From the NCBI GenBank assembly GCA_003152015.1, contig PLZF01000047.1, positions 1-64,000 on the forward strand: a stretch of DNA of 64,000 bases, written 5' to 3'. The translations under genes were made by a program, and so were the position numbers. This DNA comes from Acidimicrobiaceae bacterium. GTDB lineage: Bacteria; Actinomycetota; Acidimicrobiia; Acidimicrobiales; RAAP-2. The notes under the pieces were generated by a model, which ran no database searches, had not been told where the DNA came from, and saw only the letters and a program-made list of their open reading frames with translations. This document shows positions 5,842 to 14,519 of the stretch, one piece after another. Every line of letters starts with the position of its first letter. Position 1 is the first letter of the stretch.

Positions 5842-7488
5842 ATGTCGACGACGCGACCCAACGTGCTGGTCATCATGACGGACGAGGAAAGGTATCCGCC
5901 ACCGTACGAAGATGCCACGGTGGCCGGGTTCCGCCGGGATCACCTACCGGCCCGCGAGCGGCTGCGGGCCGGTAGCGTCGAATTCCACCGTCACTACGCG
6001 GCGTCGACCGCCTGCCTTCCCAGTCGGGCATCACTGTTCACCGGCCACTACCCCTCGCTGCACGGGGTGACCGCAACTGATGGATTGGCCAAAGCCGCCA
6101 ACGATCCCGACATCTCGTGGCTGGATCCGGACGGGGTACCCACCATGGGGGATTGGTTTCGGGCTGCCGGGTACAGCACCCACTACCGGGGGAAGTGGCA
6201 TATCTCCCACGCCGACCTCATTCCGGTCGGGAGCCATGCCGGGCTGATGGCCAATGACCGGTACGGCTCTGTGTCCAGGGAGGTGACCGACCTCTACCGC
6301 CGGGCAGACCGACTCGACCGATTCGGCTTCTCGGGATGGATCGGCCGTGAGCCACACGGCGACAACCCGGCAGATACCGGATTCGTGCGCGACCCGCTCT
6401 TCGCCGATCAGGTATGCGAGCTGTTCGGTGAGTTGACCGCCGACAAGGCCGATGAGCGGCCCTTTTTGGCGGTGGCCTCCTTCGTCAATCCCCACGACAT
6501 CGGCTTCTCGGGTTTTGGATGGGATGTGCTCGGATTTCCCGCCATCGAAGACGGTGTTCCTGACGTCGCCGAAGCCCCGTCGCAGCGGGACGACTTCGGG
6601 GGGCGACCGGAGTGCCATCGGCTGTTCCGGGATCTGTGGCCTCAGCTGCTCTATCCGCAACCGACCGACAACACCTACCGTCGCTTCTATCTCTGGCTCC
6701 ACCAACTGGTGGACAGGGCCATCGAGAGGATTCTCGTAGCGTTGGACGACTCGGGGCTGGCCGAGAACACCATTGTGGTCTTCACCTCCGACCACGGGGA
6801 CCTGGTAGGTGCCCACGGCGGCATGCAGCAGAAGTGGTACAACGCCTTCGACGAGGCCATCCGGGTTCCACTGCTGGTGTCGGGCCCGGGTATCACCGCG
6901 TCCACCCGGGGAGTGTCGGCGCCGACCAGCCACGTCGACCTTCTGCCCACCCTGCTCGGTTTGATAGGGATCGAGCCCCAGTCGCTGGTGACCCAATTGT
7001 CCGAACACCATGTCGAAGTGCAGGATCTGGTGGGCCGGGACCTGAGCCCGGCGATTCACGACCCGGACGACACCTCGGTGCTGGGATCCCCGATCTACTT
7101 CACCACCGAGGACCAGATCAGCGTCGGGCTCCGTGACCGGAACCGGTTCACCGGAGAGCCGTTCGTGCCGGTGGCTCCACCGGCCAACGTCGAGTCGGTC
7201 ATCGTCCCCATGCCCGGTGTCGACGGCGGCACCACACGGCTGTGGAAACTGAGCCAGTACTACGACCGGTTGGAAGAGTGGGAGACCACCCACCACCTCT
7301 CCCCTCCGGGAGCGACTGGGTCCGAGCTGGTGCCTTCCCAGTGGGAGCTGTACGACCTGACCGGCGATCCCGAGGAGCGGAACAACCTCTCTGCATCGTC
7401 AGACGCACCGTTCGACCAGCTCCGCGAGCTGCTCGAGTCCACCCGGGAGGACAACCGCCGGGTTCCGCTGCACCGCAATGGCAGCTGA
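5842..7488 (+). CDS. Sulfatase (formylglycine-dependent)
   Basis: A 548-residue type I sulfatase that hydrolyses sulfate esters using a formylglycine made from Cys58 in CLPSRASLFTG, a good match to the C-x-P-S-R modification motif. Other metal and active-site elements are visible: IMTDEER near the N-terminus, GKWH, and TSDHGD in the middle. No signal peptide is evident, so it is probably cytoplasmic. Its stop is 26 bases before the preferred start of murL, and all genes to 12078 run the same way. The substrate class (choline, carbohydrate or steroid sulfate) cannot be decided here. Confidence 0.85.
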   Translation: MSTTRPNVLVIMTDEERYPPPYEDATVAGFRRDHLPARERLRAGSVEFHRHYAASTACLPSRASLFTGHYPSLHGVTATDGLAKAANDPDISWLDPDGVPTMGDWFRAAGYSTHYRGKWHISHADLIPVGSHAGLMANDRYGSVSREVTDLYRRADRLDRFGFSGWIGREPHGDNPADTGFVRDPLFADQVCELFGELTADKADERPFLAVASFVNPHDIGFSGFGWDVLGFPAIEDGVPDVAEAPSQRDDFGGRPECHRLFRDLWPQLLYPQPTDNTYRRFYLWLHQLVDRAIERILVALDDSGLAENTIVVFTSDHGDLVGAHGGMQQKWYNAFDEAIRVPLLVSGPGITASTRGVSAPTSHVDLLPTLLGLIGIEPQSLVTQLSEHHVEVQDLVGRDLSPAIHDPDDTSVLGSPIYFTTEDQISVGLRDRNRFTGEPFVPVAPPANVESVIVPMPGVDGGTTRLWKLSQYYDRLEEWETTHHLSPPGATGSELVPSQWELYDLTGDPEERNNLSASSDAPFDQLRELLESTREDNRRVPLHRNGS

Positions 7489-7513: not shown

Positions 7514-8875
7514 ATGAATGACCCGAACCGGTTTGATCCGGGGTCCGTCGACACCTTCCGTATTGTCGACAATGAGTACGACCACTCCTCGCGGACCGCG
7601 TACCTCCGCTATGCGCTGGACGACAGATACTCGTTCGAGGAGACGGTGACCTTCGAAACGGTGCCCCCGCCGGGCATCCCCGTCGATGGCGGTGGTCTCG
7701 ATCGGGCCTTGCGCCACCTGCACATCGCCGCGGGCACCAGCTACTACAAGGCAGCGGCACCCCCGGTGGTCGTGGTGGAAGGAACCGGTCTCTCCGCGTC
7801 CGAGCTGGAGTTCCATCGTCGGCTCTACGACGACGGGCTGAGGGAGTTCGCGGTGGCCAACCGGCTGCCGGTCCCCCGGACGGTGGAGATCCGGGCTGCC
7901 CCGACCCTCCCGGTCGGTGCCGATCAGCTCCGGACCCTGCGACCGGGAGGTCTGGTGGTGCCCATCGGCGGCGGCAAGGACTCCATGGTGCTGATCGAAG
8001 CGGTCAGGCAGGTGGGCCCGAAGCTGTTGGCGGTGAACCCACACCCGTTGGTGATCGAGTTGGCCGGCCAGACCGGCCTCGAGCTGATCGTGATCCGCCG
8101 GAAGCTTTCTCCGGAACTTGCCCGGCTCAAGAGCGCCGGTGCGCTCAACGGTCACGTCCCCATCACCGCCATTGTGTCCCTCATCGCAGTGCTGGGAAGC
8201 TTCGTCTACGGCTACGACTCCATTGCCATGGCCATCGAGCGGTCAGCCAGCGAGGAGACCAGATTGGTCGATGGGGTGCCGGTGAACCATCAGTACTCGA
8301 AGAGCCTCGACTTCGAGAACCTCTTCCGCCGGCTGATCTCGGACTCGGTGGATCCCGGCCTGACCTATGGATCGGCGCTTCGTCGGTACTCGGAACTGGC
8401 GATTGCCCGGGCCTTCTCTCGCCTGACCGGCTACCACGCCACCTTCTGCAGTTGCAATACCGCCTTCCGTCAGCAGGCGGAGGCCGGTGACCGTTGGTGC
8501 GGTCACTGCCCCAAGTGCCGTTTCGTCGGGTTGATGCTGGCACCGTTTCTGACACCCGAGGCGCTGACCGCCATCATCGGGCGGGACATGTTCGACGATC
8601 CCGAGCAGGTCGAAGGCTTTGCCGCCCTCATGAGCGAGGATGACAAACCGTTCGAGTGCGTGGGTGAGCGGCGCGAGTCGGCGGCGGCCATGCGAATTCT
8701 CTCGGACCTGCCCGAGTGGAACGAGACGGTGGTGGTGGCCGTGCTCGGCGCCCGGGCCCGGGCCATGGTGTCGGACGCGGCGGTGGAAGAGTTGCTGGCA
8801 CCCGACCTGTCCCCGGCATTCCCCGATCCACGGGTGGACTCCGCGGTGGACCGACTCATGACCGGGGCCACGTGA
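7514..8875 (+). CDS. murL: UDP-MurNAc-L-Ala-L-Glu epimerase (MurL)
   Basis: Predicted MurL, which epimerises the terminal L-Glu of UDP-MurNAc-L-Ala-L-Glu to D-Glu with ATP, as shown for the Xanthomonas enzyme. The 453-residue protein carries an ATP-pyrophosphatase-like loop GGGKDSM at residues 152-158 and a cysteine motif near residue 325-345 (CSCNTAFR, then RWCGHCPKCRF). Start chosen at ATG 7514; an ATG at 7478 overlapping the sulfatase stop would add 12 residues. Its stop overlaps the murD2 start by four bases (GTGA). That coupling to a MurD-like ligase strongly supports the call. Confidence 0.85.
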   Translation: MNDPNRFDPGSVDTFRIVDNEYDHSSRTAYLRYALDDRYSFEETVTFETVPPPGIPVDGGGLDRALRHLHIAAGTSYYKAAAPPVVVVEGTGLSASELEFHRRLYDDGLREFAVANRLPVPRTVEIRAAPTLPVGADQLRTLRPGGLVVPIGGGKDSMVLIEAVRQVGPKLLAVNPHPLVIELAGQTGLELIVIRRKLSPELARLKSAGALNGHVPITAIVSLIAVLGSFVYGYDSIAMAIERSASEETRLVDGVPVNHQYSKSLDFENLFRRLISDSVDPGLTYGSALRRYSELAIARAFSRLTGYHATFCSCNTAFRQQAEAGDRWCGHCPKCRFVGLMLAPFLTPEALTAIIGRDMFDDPEQVEGFAALMSEDDKPFECVGERRESAAAMRILSDLPEWNETVVVAVLGARARAMVSDAAVEELLAPDLSPAFPDPRVDSAVDRLMTGAT

Positions 8876-10248
8876 CCCTCGACGACCTGTGCGACGGCAA
8901 GGTGGTGGCGGTGTGGGGCATGGGGACGGAGGGATTGGCCGTGACCCGCCTGCTCGTCGAGCGAGGTGTGTCGCCCATCCTCATCGACGATCACCCCGAG
9001 AATGCGGTCGCCCGGGTCAGAGAGGTCCTGTCGCTTCGGACACCGGTGGTGCCGCCCGACCTGGTGGCATGGAGCTCCTTGGACGTCGTGGTCCGCTCCC
9101 CGGGGGTGAGCCGGTACCGGCTGGAGCTGGTGGCGGCGGAATCTGAAGGCGTCACCGTCACCACCGCCACCGCGATCTGGTTGGAGGACTTCCACGCCGC
9201 GCCGGTGTTGGCGGTAACCGGCACCAAAGGGAAGAGCACCACCGCCTCGTTGGCGACTTCGATCCTCGAGCACCTGGGCCTCACCGTGGCACTGGTCGGA
9301 AATATCGGCGAGCCGGTGGCCGACCTGTACGGCCGGGCTCCGGTGGACGCCTACGTGGTGGAAGTCTCGTCGTACCAGGCAGCCGATGTCTCGGTCTCAC
9401 CGGGAGTGTGCGTCCTCACCAGCCTGGCTCCCGATCACCTTGACTGGCACGGGGGAGAAGAGACCTATTACCGGGACAAACTTCGGCTCATCACCGCCGG
9501 GCCACCCGGGTCGCTGGCGGTCAACGCCGGGAGTGCCGAAGCCGTACGCCGTACCGCCGGCCATCCTCACCGCACCCTCTTCGGCCCATCCGGACGGGTC
9601 CGGGTCGAATCGACAGGGACGGTCTCCATCGACGGGGAGCCGGTGGTGGAGGCGGCACGGCTCCGGGTGCCGGGTGAGCACAACGTGAACAACCTGTGTG
9701 GCGCCATCGCCGGGGTACTGCTGCTCCGAGGGGAGCCGCCCTCGGCTGACGCGGTGGCGGCAGCGGTCGACGGGTACGACGGATTACCGTCGCGGTGCCG
9801 AACGGTGGGTGAGCGAAATGGCCTGACCTTCGTTGACGATGCGCTTGCCTCCAACCCGTTCGCCACCAGTGCGTCGGTGGCGGCATTTCCCGGGCGTGAC
9901 ATCACGGTCATTCTGGGCGGGGCCGACCGGGGGATCGATCCGGGCCAGTTGGCTACCTTGCTGGCGGACCGCCATCCGCGCCCGAACGTGGTGGTAATGC
10001 CGCCGGGACCCGAGCGGATGCTGGGGGCGTTGGAGCACGCGGCATCCGGCACCGGCGGCAAGCTAGCGGTGGAGACAGCCCGTGATCTCGATGAGGCGGT
10101 GACGATGGCCATGGCGGTGACCCCGGTCGGCGGGGTCGTGCTCTTTTCCCCTGCCGCGCCCACGCCGGAGGGTGAGGGTGGCTACCGCCGGCGCAGCCGA
10201 CAGTTCATCTCCGCCATCGGCCTGCCGGTGGATCCGGCTTCCCGTTGA
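8872..10248 (+). CDS. murD2: UDP-MurNAc-L-alanine:L-glutamate ligase (MurD2)
   Basis: A 458-residue Mur ligase: N-terminal UDP-binding domain (VVAVWGMGTEGLAVTRLL), central ATPase with GTKGKSTT at residues 117-124, and C-terminal domain. Ordinary MurD adds D-Glu; a MurD paralogue coupled to MurL is known in Xanthomonas to add L-Glu to UDP-MurNAc-L-Ala, with MurL then inverting it. Adjacency, not sequence alone, makes this MurD2. It starts at GTG 8872 overlapping the murL stop; an ATG at 8716 would lie inside murL and gives non-MurD-like residues. The DrrA-like ABC gene follows after 22 bases. Confidence 0.85.
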   Translation: MTLDDLCDGKVVAVWGMGTEGLAVTRLLVERGVSPILIDDHPENAVARVREVLSLRTPVVPPDLVAWSSLDVVVRSPGVSRYRLELVAAESEGVTVTTATAIWLEDFHAAPVLAVTGTKGKSTTASLATSILEHLGLTVALVGNIGEPVADLYGRAPVDAYVVEVSSYQAADVSVSPGVCVLTSLAPDHLDWHGGEETYYRDKLRLITAGPPGSLAVNAGSAEAVRRTAGHPHRTLFGPSGRVRVESTGTVSIDGEPVVEAARLRVPGEHNVNNLCGAIAGVLLLRGEPPSADAVAAAVDGYDGLPSRCRTVGERNGLTFVDDALASNPFATSASVAAFPGRDITVILGGADRGIDPGQLATLLADRHPRPNVVVMPPGPERMLGALEHAASGTGGKLAVETARDLDEAVTMAMAVTPVGGVVLFSPAAPTPEGEGGYRRRSRQFISAIGLPVDPASR

Positions 10249-12085: not shown

Positions 12086-14392
12086 TCACTGTTCGGCGAG
12101 GATGGCGGCCAACTCGGCCAATGGATCCCTGACCTGCGGCCCGATGGTTTCGACGGTTGCCATGTTGATGACCCCGTTGAATCGGAAGGGTGCCTGGTAG
12201 TCGCGCCCAACCGCCGGCCCCCATTCATACCCACAGGTAAGGCCGATCCCCACGCCGTTGAAACCCGAAGGGGTAAAGCGTGGCAACGTACCCTGAGCGA
12301 CTGTCTCACCGTCGCAGGTGAGAACAACCCGCCCTCCGAGCCCGTCGTCCTTTTCGAATTCGAACGAGACGGAGTGATCCCCCGACCCGAGGGGACCGGC
12401 GGCCTCGATGACGTGGTGCTCTTTGCCGTACAGATTGTGAACGTAGCGGAGTCGTCCTTCGTGGAGGTGGAAGGACCATCCCCCCAGGGCACACCCGAGG
12501 GCGAGTAGCACGCCCCGGGGGACCACACCGACGGGGACGCTCACTTCTACGGTGATGCGATGGGACCGGTTACGTACGTTGACTGCGACCTGCTCGGGCA
12601 CGGGAGAAACATCGGGAAAGTACCGGAAACGGGTCCGGGGACGGCGATGGTCGGGCTTGGGGTGGGTGAGTGCCCACAGCACGCGATTGTCGAGGGGGAG
12701 CACCTGATTCCGGCGCGCCTCGTCCCACCACAAGGCCACAAGTTCGGCCACCCGATCGGGATATTCGGCCGCCAGGTCTCGGGACTCGGAGATGTCCTCG
12801 GCTACGTGATAGAGCTCCCACACGTCATCTTCGAACGAAGCGTTGGGGTTCAGTCCGTCGTCATAGAGAGGCCCCACCGGATGAAAGGTGACAGCTTTCC
12901 AACCGCAGTGGTAGATGGCGCGGGAACCGAACATCTCGAAGTGTTGGGTGACGTGTTGTTCAGGAGCCGATGCACCGTCGACCCCGAGCAGATACTCGAA
13001 ACTCACCCCGTCGATAGGCGATTGGCGGACTGACTCGATCTCGGCCGGCGCCTCGATACCGGCCAGTTCGAGCACCGTCGGGAGAACGTCGATGGCGTGG
13101 GCGAACTGGGGTCGGATTTGTCCGGCACTGGCACCGAGCCGGGCCGGCCAAGTGACGATGCACGGATCGGCCACTCCTCCCTGGTGCACCTCGCGCTTCC
13201 AACGTTTGAACGGGGTGTTGCCCGCCATGGTCCAGCCCCACGGATAGTTGTTGTGGCCCAGCGGGCCACCGATCTCATCGATGCGGTCGTACATCTCACC
13301 GATCCCGGCCGGGTCGAGGTTGGAGAGTCGCACATCGTTGATGGAGCCCTCCGCACCGCCCTCCGCGCTGGCGCCGTTGTCCGACACCACCAGAATCAGC
13401 GTGTCGTCGAGCTCGCCGAGTTGGCGAAGAAAGTCGATCACCCGACCCAGCTGATGGTCGGTATGGGAGAGGAAGCCGGCGAAGCACTCCATGAATCGGG
13501 CGGCCACCGCCCGTTGGCGATCGTCGAGTGTCTCCCATGCCGGCACCCAGGGCGGCCGGGGTGAGAGGACGGTGCCGGGTGGCACGATCCCTAGCGCCAG
13601 TTGGCGTGCCAGCGTGCGTTCACGCCACGCATCCCAACCGTCATTGAACGCGCCGGCGTAGTGCCCGATCCATTCCGCCGGAGCCTGGTGAGGGGAGTGG
13701 CAGGCGCCGGTGGCCACGTAGAGGAAGAACCGTTGGTCGGCATCCACTGCCCGCAGATCGGCGACGAACTCGATGGCCCGGTCAGCCAGGTCCTCGCTGA
13801 GGTGGTATCCGTCCTCGACCGTCGCCGGTGGTCGGATGGAGTGATTGTCGTGATAGAGGGCGGGGGCGAACTGGTGTGTCTCGCCACCGTGGAATCCGTA
13901 CCAACGATCGAAACCTCGACCCAGGGGCCAGGTGGAGCGGGGCGCAGCCATATGGGTCTCATCCTCGGGGGTCAGGTGCCATTTGCCCACCGCGTAGCCG
14001 GCATAGCCGTTGGCCCGGAGAATCTCACTCAGAAAGCCGTTCTCCCTGGGAGGGCGACCCCAGTAGCCGGGGTAGCCGATGGCCAGGTCCGCCACCCGTC
14101 CCATGCCGTTCCGGTGGTGGTTACGCCCGGTCAACAGGCAGGCCCGGGTGGGGGAGCACAGCGCGGTGGTGTGGAAGTTGGACAGACGGATCCCGTTGGC
14201 GCCCAGTGCGTCCATCACCGGGGTGGCAATGTCCGATCCGTAACAACCGAGCTGGGCGAACCCGACGTCATCCAGTACGACGAGCACGACATTCGGAGCG
14301 CCGGCCGGAGGCTCGGGAACGGGTGGCCACCATGGCTCTGAATCCCGCCAGTCGTGTCCGATACGGCCTCCGAATTCAGCATCACCGCGCAT
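12086..14392 (-). CDS. Arylsulfatase-type sulfatase with C-terminal extension
   Basis: A 768-residue type I sulfatase. The metal-binding Asp pair is at 41-42 (VVLDDVGFAQLGCYG) and the formylglycine cysteine at 79 in ALCSPTRACLLTGRNHH, a perfect C-x-P-x-R motif. GKWHLTP and VVSDNGAS are further family blocks. About 200 residues after the catalytic region (LSYRVRSHRITVEV-like beta-rich sequence) look like an extra carbohydrate- or lamin-G-like domain. The ATG at 14392 has AAGGAG seven bases upstream; an ATG 32 codons earlier lacks this. No signal peptide is seen. It is the second sulfatase in the window but of a different subfamily from that at 5842. Confidence 0.85.
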   Translation of the reverse strand: MRGDAEFGGRIGHDWRDSEPWWPPVPEPPAGAPNVVLVVLDDVGFAQLGCYGSDIATPVMDALGANGIRLSNFHTTALCSPTRACLLTGRNHHRNGMGRVADLAIGYPGYWGRPPRENGFLSEILRANGYAGYAVGKWHLTPEDETHMAAPRSTWPLGRGFDRWYGFHGGETHQFAPALYHDNHSIRPPATVEDGYHLSEDLADRAIEFVADLRAVDADQRFFLYVATGACHSPHQAPAEWIGHYAGAFNDGWDAWRERTLARQLALGIVPPGTVLSPRPPWVPAWETLDDRQRAVAARFMECFAGFLSHTDHQLGRVIDFLRQLGELDDTLILVVSDNGASAEGGAEGSINDVRLSNLDPAGIGEMYDRIDEIGGPLGHNNYPWGWTMAGNTPFKRWKREVHQGGVADPCIVTWPARLGASAGQIRPQFAHAIDVLPTVLELAGIEAPAEIESVRQSPIDGVSFEYLLGVDGASAPEQHVTQHFEMFGSRAIYHCGWKAVTFHPVGPLYDDGLNPNASFEDDVWELYHVAEDISESRDLAAEYPDRVAELVALWWDEARRNQVLPLDNRVLWALTHPKPDHRRPRTRFRYFPDVSPVPEQVAVNVRNRSHRITVEVSVPVGVVPRGVLLALGCALGGWSFHLHEGRLRYVHNLYGKEHHVIEAAGPLGSGDHSVSFEFEKDDGLGGRVVLTCDGETVAQGTLPRFTPSGFNGVGIGLTCGYEWGPAVGRDYQAPFRFNGVINMATVETIGPQVRDPLAELAAILAEQ

Positions 14393-14519
14393 CGGACGAC
14401 TCCTTGGGTCTGGATGGGATTCCCCTCGTGAGCCGGGGAAGTCATGATGTAGTCCGAAGACGACGGTACCGCAGAGCCTGGCCGGCACGCCGGGTGCAGA
14501 AGAGGAAGGGTGACATCAC

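What the first reader, a model, noticed from the sequence alone, without database searches (positions are those of the whole stretch)
7514..10248. MurL-MurD2 alternative D-glutamate pathway in an actinobacterium-like genome
MurL-like and MurD-like genes overlap by four bases. The MurL candidate keeps an ATP-pyrophosphatase loop (GGGKDSM) and a Cys motif; the ligase has GTKGKST. From Xanthomonas work, such a pair ligates L-Glu to UDP-MurNAc-L-Ala and then inverts it, bypassing glutamate racemase. Whether this organism also has MurI and a normal MurD cannot be seen here.
Basis: partly seen in the sequence, partly recalled or inferred. Interest (0 to 1): 0.75.

Follow-up and report, generated by a model that had tools for sequence, protein, structure and literature searches.

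The report
MurL–MurD2 cell-wall pathway in Acidimicrobiales
This uncultured-type actinobacterium appears to make the mirror-image glutamate of its cell wall only after attaching normal glutamate to the wall precursor, using two genes known so far from Xanthomonas and Micromonospora in place of the usual racemase and ligase, both of which are missing from its genome.

Summary
murL (7514-8875) and a murD-type ligase (8872-10248) overlap by GTGA. The 3.57-Mb genome (94% complete) has no MurI, no Asp/Glu racemase family member and no dedicated D-amino-acid transaminase (the one hit is IlvE). Its only MurD is this one; canonical murD is gone from between mraY and ftsW. Across 148 genomes of the order, full-length MurL occurs in 20 and MurI in 106, never together (p=2e-13). 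All 20 MurL genomes lack murD between mraY and ftsW; 19 of 19 checked canonical genomes have it there. The ligase belongs to one MurD2 clade (100/100) and has two residues that separate MurD2 from MurD: R353 (X. oryzae R358) and L325 (E. coli K319). It keeps Asp at the third site, where X. oryzae has Glu197. The pathway itself is published, so this is a new member, in an order not named in the papers I could read. One addition may be new: the confident MurL model matches QatC/QueC (Z 18.7/13.3) with a QueC-type Cys4 site, a concrete basis for ATP-dependent adenylation in an enzyme described as lacking known domains. No activity was measured.

The parts
7514..8875 (+). [quoted passage not shown]
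   Evidence: NF041275 387 bits, E=8.5e-116; 63-68% identical to Acidimicrobiaceae MurLs, about 40% to Xanthomonas/Micromonospora
7967..7984 (+). GGGKDS pyrophosphate loop of MurL (residues 152-157), variant of SGGxDS
   Evidence: invariant in 37 MurLs; aligns with SGGLDS of QueC
8453..8518 (+). C314-x14-CxxCxxC (C314, C329, C332, C335), probable Zn site of MurL
   Evidence: invariant in 37 MurLs; aligned with Cys190/200/203/206 of QueC; QatC Zn site is C334/C354/C357/C360 (PMC13279940)
8872..10248 (+). [quoted passage not shown]
   Evidence: TIGR01087 239 bits; MurD2 clade 100/100 against canonical MurD
9220..9240 (+). GTKGKST P-loop of MurD2 (residues 117-123)
   Evidence: direct reading; K121 aligns with E. 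coli MurD K115
9433..9435 (+). MurD2 D188, site of X. oryzae E197 / E. coli D182: keeps the canonical Asp
   Evidence: mutagenesis of this site in PMC8788868
9844..9846 (+). MurD2 L325 replacing E. coli K319
   Evidence: L/I/F in every readable MurD2, K in all canonical MurDs; E. coli K319T accepts L-Glu (PMC8788868)
9928..9930 (+). MurD2 R353, equivalent of X. oryzae R358 / E. coli K348
   Evidence: R in every readable MurD2, K in all canonical MurDs

Best explanation
The pair is a MurD2-MurL bypass that is the cell's only route to the D-Glu of peptidoglycan. [quoted passage not shown] MurE and MurF continue as usual. Shown here: gene content, absence of the canonical route, clade membership, conserved residues, predicted fold. 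Shown by others for orthologues: both activities and AMP formation (Xanthomonas; Micromonospora and Salinispora orthologues confirmed in vitro). Inferred: activity of these two proteins, the adenylation step and the catalytic base.
For: No MurI, no PF01177 member, no DAT over cut-off (the hit is IlvE, 432 bits) and only one MurD in the genome. MurL and MurI mutually exclusive in the order: 20 and 106 of 148 genomes, none with both, with both states found inside six families. murD lost between mraY and ftsW in 20/20 MurL genomes and present there in 19/19 canonical genomes checked. MurD2 one clade, 100/100, with R353 and L325 diagnostic. murL and murD2 adjacent in nearly all MurL genomes. murC, murE, murF-like, murB, murG, mraY and MurT are present, so a normal D-Glu-containing wall is expected. 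MurL model pLDDT 94, pTM 0.94; QatC Z 18.7, QueC 13.3, Cap9 12.7.
Against: D188 is Asp, as in canonical MurD; in X. oryzae MurD2 the E197D change alone altered stereospecificity (PMC8788868), so this ligase may be less L-specific. The genome is a 114-contig draft, 94% complete, so single absences are soft; the pattern over 20 genomes is not. IlvE-type enzymes could in principle make some D-Glu. The fold match is structural: profile-profile support against QueC is weak (single-comparison E 0.0046, HHalign probability 7.6%), and Foldseek alone gave no hit under E 0.001.
Confidence: 0.92

Rival explanations
1. The ligase is a canonical D-Glu-adding MurD that has moved out of the dcw cluster, and MurL does something else; D-Glu comes from an unrecognised enzyme.
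For: D188 is the canonical Asp; the draft genome is incomplete; some related families (f35, f57) lack both MurI and MurL yet have canonical MurD, so an unrecognised D-Glu source may exist in this order.
Against: The ligase is inside the MurD2 clade, apart from all canonical MurDs; K319 and K348 are replaced as in all MurD2s; MurL presence predicts MurI absence in 20/20 genomes.
Confidence: 0.05
2. A variant of the main reading: the acidimicrobial MurD2 is dual-specific (accepts both L- and D-Glu) because it naturally has the X. oryzae 'E197D' residue; MurL then sets the final configuration, acting on the L-epimer only.
For: D at this site in the window and in nearly all acidimicrobial MurD2s against E in Xanthomonas, Stenotrophomonas and Micromonospora; E197D in X. 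oryzae MurD2 changed its stereospecificity (PMC8788868).
Against: R353 and L325 are kept; no free D-Glu source was found in the genome, so dual specificity would have no obvious use.
Confidence: 0.25
3. The pair is a silent or recently acquired extra copy with no role in wall synthesis.
For: It lies away from the dcw cluster, beside sulfatase and ABC-transporter genes.
Against: It is the only MurD in the genome, MurD is essential for peptidoglycan synthesis, and all 16 sampled same-family genomes carry MurL.
Confidence: 0.02

Closest known systems
MurD2 (XOO_1320) and MurL (XOO_1319) of Xanthomonas oryzae
   Same: Same two gene families, adjacent; MurI and DAT missing; R358 equivalent kept; MurL core residues kept.
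   Different: About 40% identity between this MurL and Xanthomonas-group MurLs; Asp instead of Glu at X. oryzae position 197; Leu instead of Ile at the E. coli K319 position (Xanthomonas relatives L160, L166).
MurL/MurD2 of Micromonospora and Salinispora (orthologues confirmed in vitro, PMC8788868)
   Same: Actinobacterial; similar score to the MurL model (416 against 387 bits); Leu at the K319 site and Arg at the K348 site.
   Different: Different sub-clades of both trees; Glu at the 197 site; in the Micromonospora and Symbioplanes loci murD2 is not directly downstream of murL but upstream on the other strand.
QatC (qatABCD anti-phage defence) and QueC (preQ0 synthase)
   Same: Predicted MurL fold: N-terminal extension plus PP-loop core, C-terminal helices and Cys4 site; Z 18.7 over 316 residues to QatC, 13.3 to QueC.
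   Different: About 10-14% identity; GGGxDS instead of SGGxDS; reaction is peptide epimerisation, not CDG amidation or protein conjugation; MurL does not match the QueC Pfam model.

Membership tests
[quoted passage not shown] oryzae-type MurL | tested here: met
   NF041275 residues 8-437 against model 3-436 of 447, E=8.5e-116
[quoted passage not shown]
   387 bits; the model is restricted to Xanthomonadales and a Micromonospora MurL also scores only 416, so the cut-off does not define the function
[quoted passage not shown]
   All invariant columns of 37 MurLs from several phyla are present in the window protein, which is one of the 37
[quoted passage not shown]
   needs enzyme assay
[quoted passage not shown]
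   100/100 support, 49 MurD2 rows against 21 canonical
[quoted passage not shown] oryzae R358 (E. coli K348) | tested here: met
   R353
[quoted passage not shown] coli K319 | tested here: met
   L325; L/I/F in all readable MurD2s, K in all canonical
[quoted passage not shown] oryzae E197 (reported for X. oryzae; not shown to define the family) | tested here: not met
   D188; but 11 of 76 database MurD2s and 17 of 18 from the order also have Asp, so this is not a defining feature of the clade
MurD2-MurL pathway | Host lacks MurI, DAT and canonical MurD | tested here: met
   draft genome 94.3% complete
QueC family (PF06508) | Match to the QueC Pfam model | tested here: not met
   no hit for any of 37 MurLs up to E=1
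QueC-like fold (PP-loop plus Cys4 Zn site) | Core fold and the two hallmark motifs in register | tested here: met
   Z 13.3 to QueC and 18.7 to QatC; loop and all four Cys align in register, though with weak profile probability; rests on a predicted model, metal binding not tested

The most novel reading that the evidence does not exclude
MurL is a QueC/QatC-lineage PP-loop enzyme with a Zn Cys4 site and the QatC-type N-terminal extension. A scaffold known for making preQ0 and for attaching bases to proteins in phage defence would thus also have given rise to a cell-wall peptide epimerase that works through a carboxyl adenylate. Neither 2026 QueC-family paper I searched mentions MurL. In addition, the Acidimicrobiales MurD2 keeps Asp at the stereoselectivity site and must select L-Glu through other residues, or be dual-specific.
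Probability: 0.7. Interest if true: 0.65.

Novelty: new member of a known kind. Interest (0 to 1): 0.5.

Why it matters
It extends the MurL bypass to Acidimicrobiales and shows, at the level of an order, that the pathway is a full swap: MurI and canonical murD are both absent whenever MurL-MurD2 is present, and the state varies within at least six families. That gives natural replicates for asking how an essential wall pathway is exchanged. The residue survey shows that Glu197 does not mark all MurD2s and points to the K319 and K348 sites as the general markers. The QatC/QueC-like fold turns the open question of how MurL uses ATP into a testable one.

Tried and rejected
PDB sequence searches with MurL alone found nothing and with a profile only weak PP-loop hits to TtuA (E 0.0076). 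Pfam and PADLOC gave no family for MurL. My first MurD tree mixed in wrong-strand translations of canonical MurDs; it was discarded and redone. Considered and rejected: that the DAT-like hit supplies D-Glu (it is IlvE, 432 bits over cut-off); that MurI was merely missed through an incomplete assembly (absent in all 20 MurL genomes). Atomic coordinates of the model were not available in the Python box, so I could not measure whether the four Cys cluster or which residue is the catalytic base; invariant C382, H214, H259, K263 and K378 are only candidates.

Full report
WHAT IS THERE. At 7514-8875 (+) lies a 453-aa protein that matches the NCBIfam MurL model end to end (E=8.5e-116, 387 bits). At 8872-10248 (+) lies a 458-aa MurD-type ligase (TIGR01087, 239 bits, over the cut-off of 212). 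The stop of the first and the GTG start of the second share GTGA at 8872-8875, and a four-base overlap is kept in two related MAGs, L091 and L092. The MurL cut-off of 700 is tuned to Xanthomonadales: a Stenotrophomonas MurL scores 821 but a Micromonospora one only 416, and Micromonospora is a genus with an orthologue verified in vitro (PMC8788868).

WHERE IT COMES FROM. The window is contig C52 of a 3.57-Mb, 114-contig genome, 94.3% complete. The nearest MurLs (63-68% identity) are in Acidimicrobiales and Acidimicrobiaceae MAGs. The review lists Micromonospora, Actinoplanes, Verrucosispora and Salinispora as the actinobacterial carriers; my literature search found no paper on MurL in Acidimicrobiales, with the limit that only open-access papers are held.

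THE CANONICAL ROUTE IS MISSING. In this genome MurI gives no match at E<=10, the Asp/Glu racemase family PF01177 none at E<=1, and MurD exactly one over cut-off, the window's own. The only D-amino-acid transaminase-like hit is IlvE, 432 bits against a cut-off of 246. The rest of the pathway is present: ftsI-murE-mraY-ftsW-murG-murC-murB-ftsQ-ftsZ in order on C34, a murF-like gene on C110, and MurT, the lipid II isoglutaminyl synthase subunit, on C95 (ftsQ, murB, murG and ftsZ named from their sequences and order). murD, which should sit between mraY and ftsW, is cleanly gone: the two genes are about 80 bases apart.

THE SAME PATTERN ACROSS THE ORDER. In 148 genomes, full-length MurL is in 20 and MurI in 106, with no overlap (Fisher p=1.9e-13). 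The 21st MurL-like hit, G051, is a partial match in a 322-aa frame and that genome has MurI. Genomes are related, so the p-value overstates independence. But six families (f3, f16, f18, f23, f31, f45) hold both MurL genomes and MurI genomes, and exclusion holds in each. All 16 sampled genomes of the window's family have MurL. In 20 of 20 MurL genomes ftsW follows mraY directly; in 19 of 19 canonical genomes checked, murD lies between them. So the swap is total: racemase and ligase go together.

THE LIGASE IS A MURD2. A tree of 70 proteins puts all MurD2s, the window's included, on one side of a branch with full support (100/100) and all 21 canonical MurDs on the other. Published mutagenesis (PMC8788868) implicates X. 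oryzae E197 and R358 (E. coli D182 and K348) and E. coli K319. The window has R353 at the second and L325 at the third. Every readable MurD2 has Arg at the second and Leu, Ile or Phe at the third, and every canonical MurD has Lys at both. At the first site the window has D188, as in canonical MurD. So do 17 of 18 MurD2s of the order and a few others, while Xanthomonas, Stenotrophomonas, Micromonospora and most others have Glu. Since E197D alone altered the X. oryzae enzyme, relaxed specificity is possible here and is listed as a rival.

WHAT MURL IS. Published reviews say MurL has no known conserved domain, needs ATP, and releases AMP. An AlphaFold2 model from 37 MurLs is very confident (mean pLDDT 94.3, pTM 0.94). 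Its best structural matches are QatC of the qatABCD anti-phage system (Z 18.7, 316 residues, model 11-407), QueC (13.3) and Cap9 (12.7), then other PP-loop ATP pyrophosphatases such as TtuA, LarE, TilS and NAD synthetase at Z 7-9. QatC consists of an N-terminal extension of four strands and three helices, a QueC core with Zn on C334/C354/C357/C360, and a C-terminal helical extension (PMC13279940). MurL has strands at 14-23, 28-35, 39-47 and 85-93 with helices, then GGGKDS, then C314-x14-CxxCxxC, then C-terminal helices. QueC's motifs are SGGxDS and C(x)8CxxCxxC (PMC13329287). A profile comparison of MurL with acidimicrobial QueC aligns the loop and all four Cys in register, but with weak statistics (E 0.0046, probability 7.6%); the unrelated MurD2 control aligned only 41 columns at E 0.06. 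I therefore claim a QueC/QatC-like fold (probable), not membership of PF06508 (no match). Neither 2026 QueC paper mentions MurL in its text. An ATP pyrophosphatase fold fits the published proposal that the alpha-carboxylate is adenylated before the alpha-carbon is inverted.

HOW IT MOST LIKELY WORKS. [quoted passage not shown] The activities are known for orthologues; for these proteins they are inferred. The base or bases are unknown.

EVOLUTION. The order's MurD2s fall into at least three lineages: the window's, a 13-genome lineage that includes four other same-family genomes (G022, G074, G110, G142), and one genome beside Micromonosporaceae. The MurL tree largely agrees, except G041, whose murL and murD2 are on different contigs and have different nearest kin. 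So the pair usually travels together but can be assembled from different sources.

VERDICT. The finding is real and correctly read. The pathway is known, so it is a new member of a known kind, with two useful additions: a genome-scale demonstration of complete replacement, and a structural assignment that makes the MurL mechanism testable.

Noticed in passing
genomes G035, G085, G119 (family f35) and G057 (f57), same order: Canonical MurD present but no MurI, no PF01177 member, no MurL and only about 100-bit class-IV aminotransferases well under the DAT cut-off; their D-Glu source is unclear.
   Followed up: partly
L171 and L172 (G041): murL and murD2 are unlinked in this genome and their trees disagree, suggesting the two were acquired or replaced separately.
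   Followed up: partly
L026 (G051) and L028 (G041:C3): Short MurL-like frames (about 300-320 aa) that match only the core of the model; G051 also has MurI, so this may be a related family with another function.
   Followed up: no
window 5842-7488 and 12086-14488: Two sulfatase-family genes flank the pair. In relatives L091 and L092 the slot between the SnoaL-like gene and murL holds a small ORF of about 160-175 aa instead of the first sulfatase.
   Followed up: partly
L109, L112, L114, L115, L157: MurL also occurs in Solirubrobacter, Patulibacter, Dormibacterota and a Myxococcota-type MAG, groups not in the published list.
   Followed up: partly
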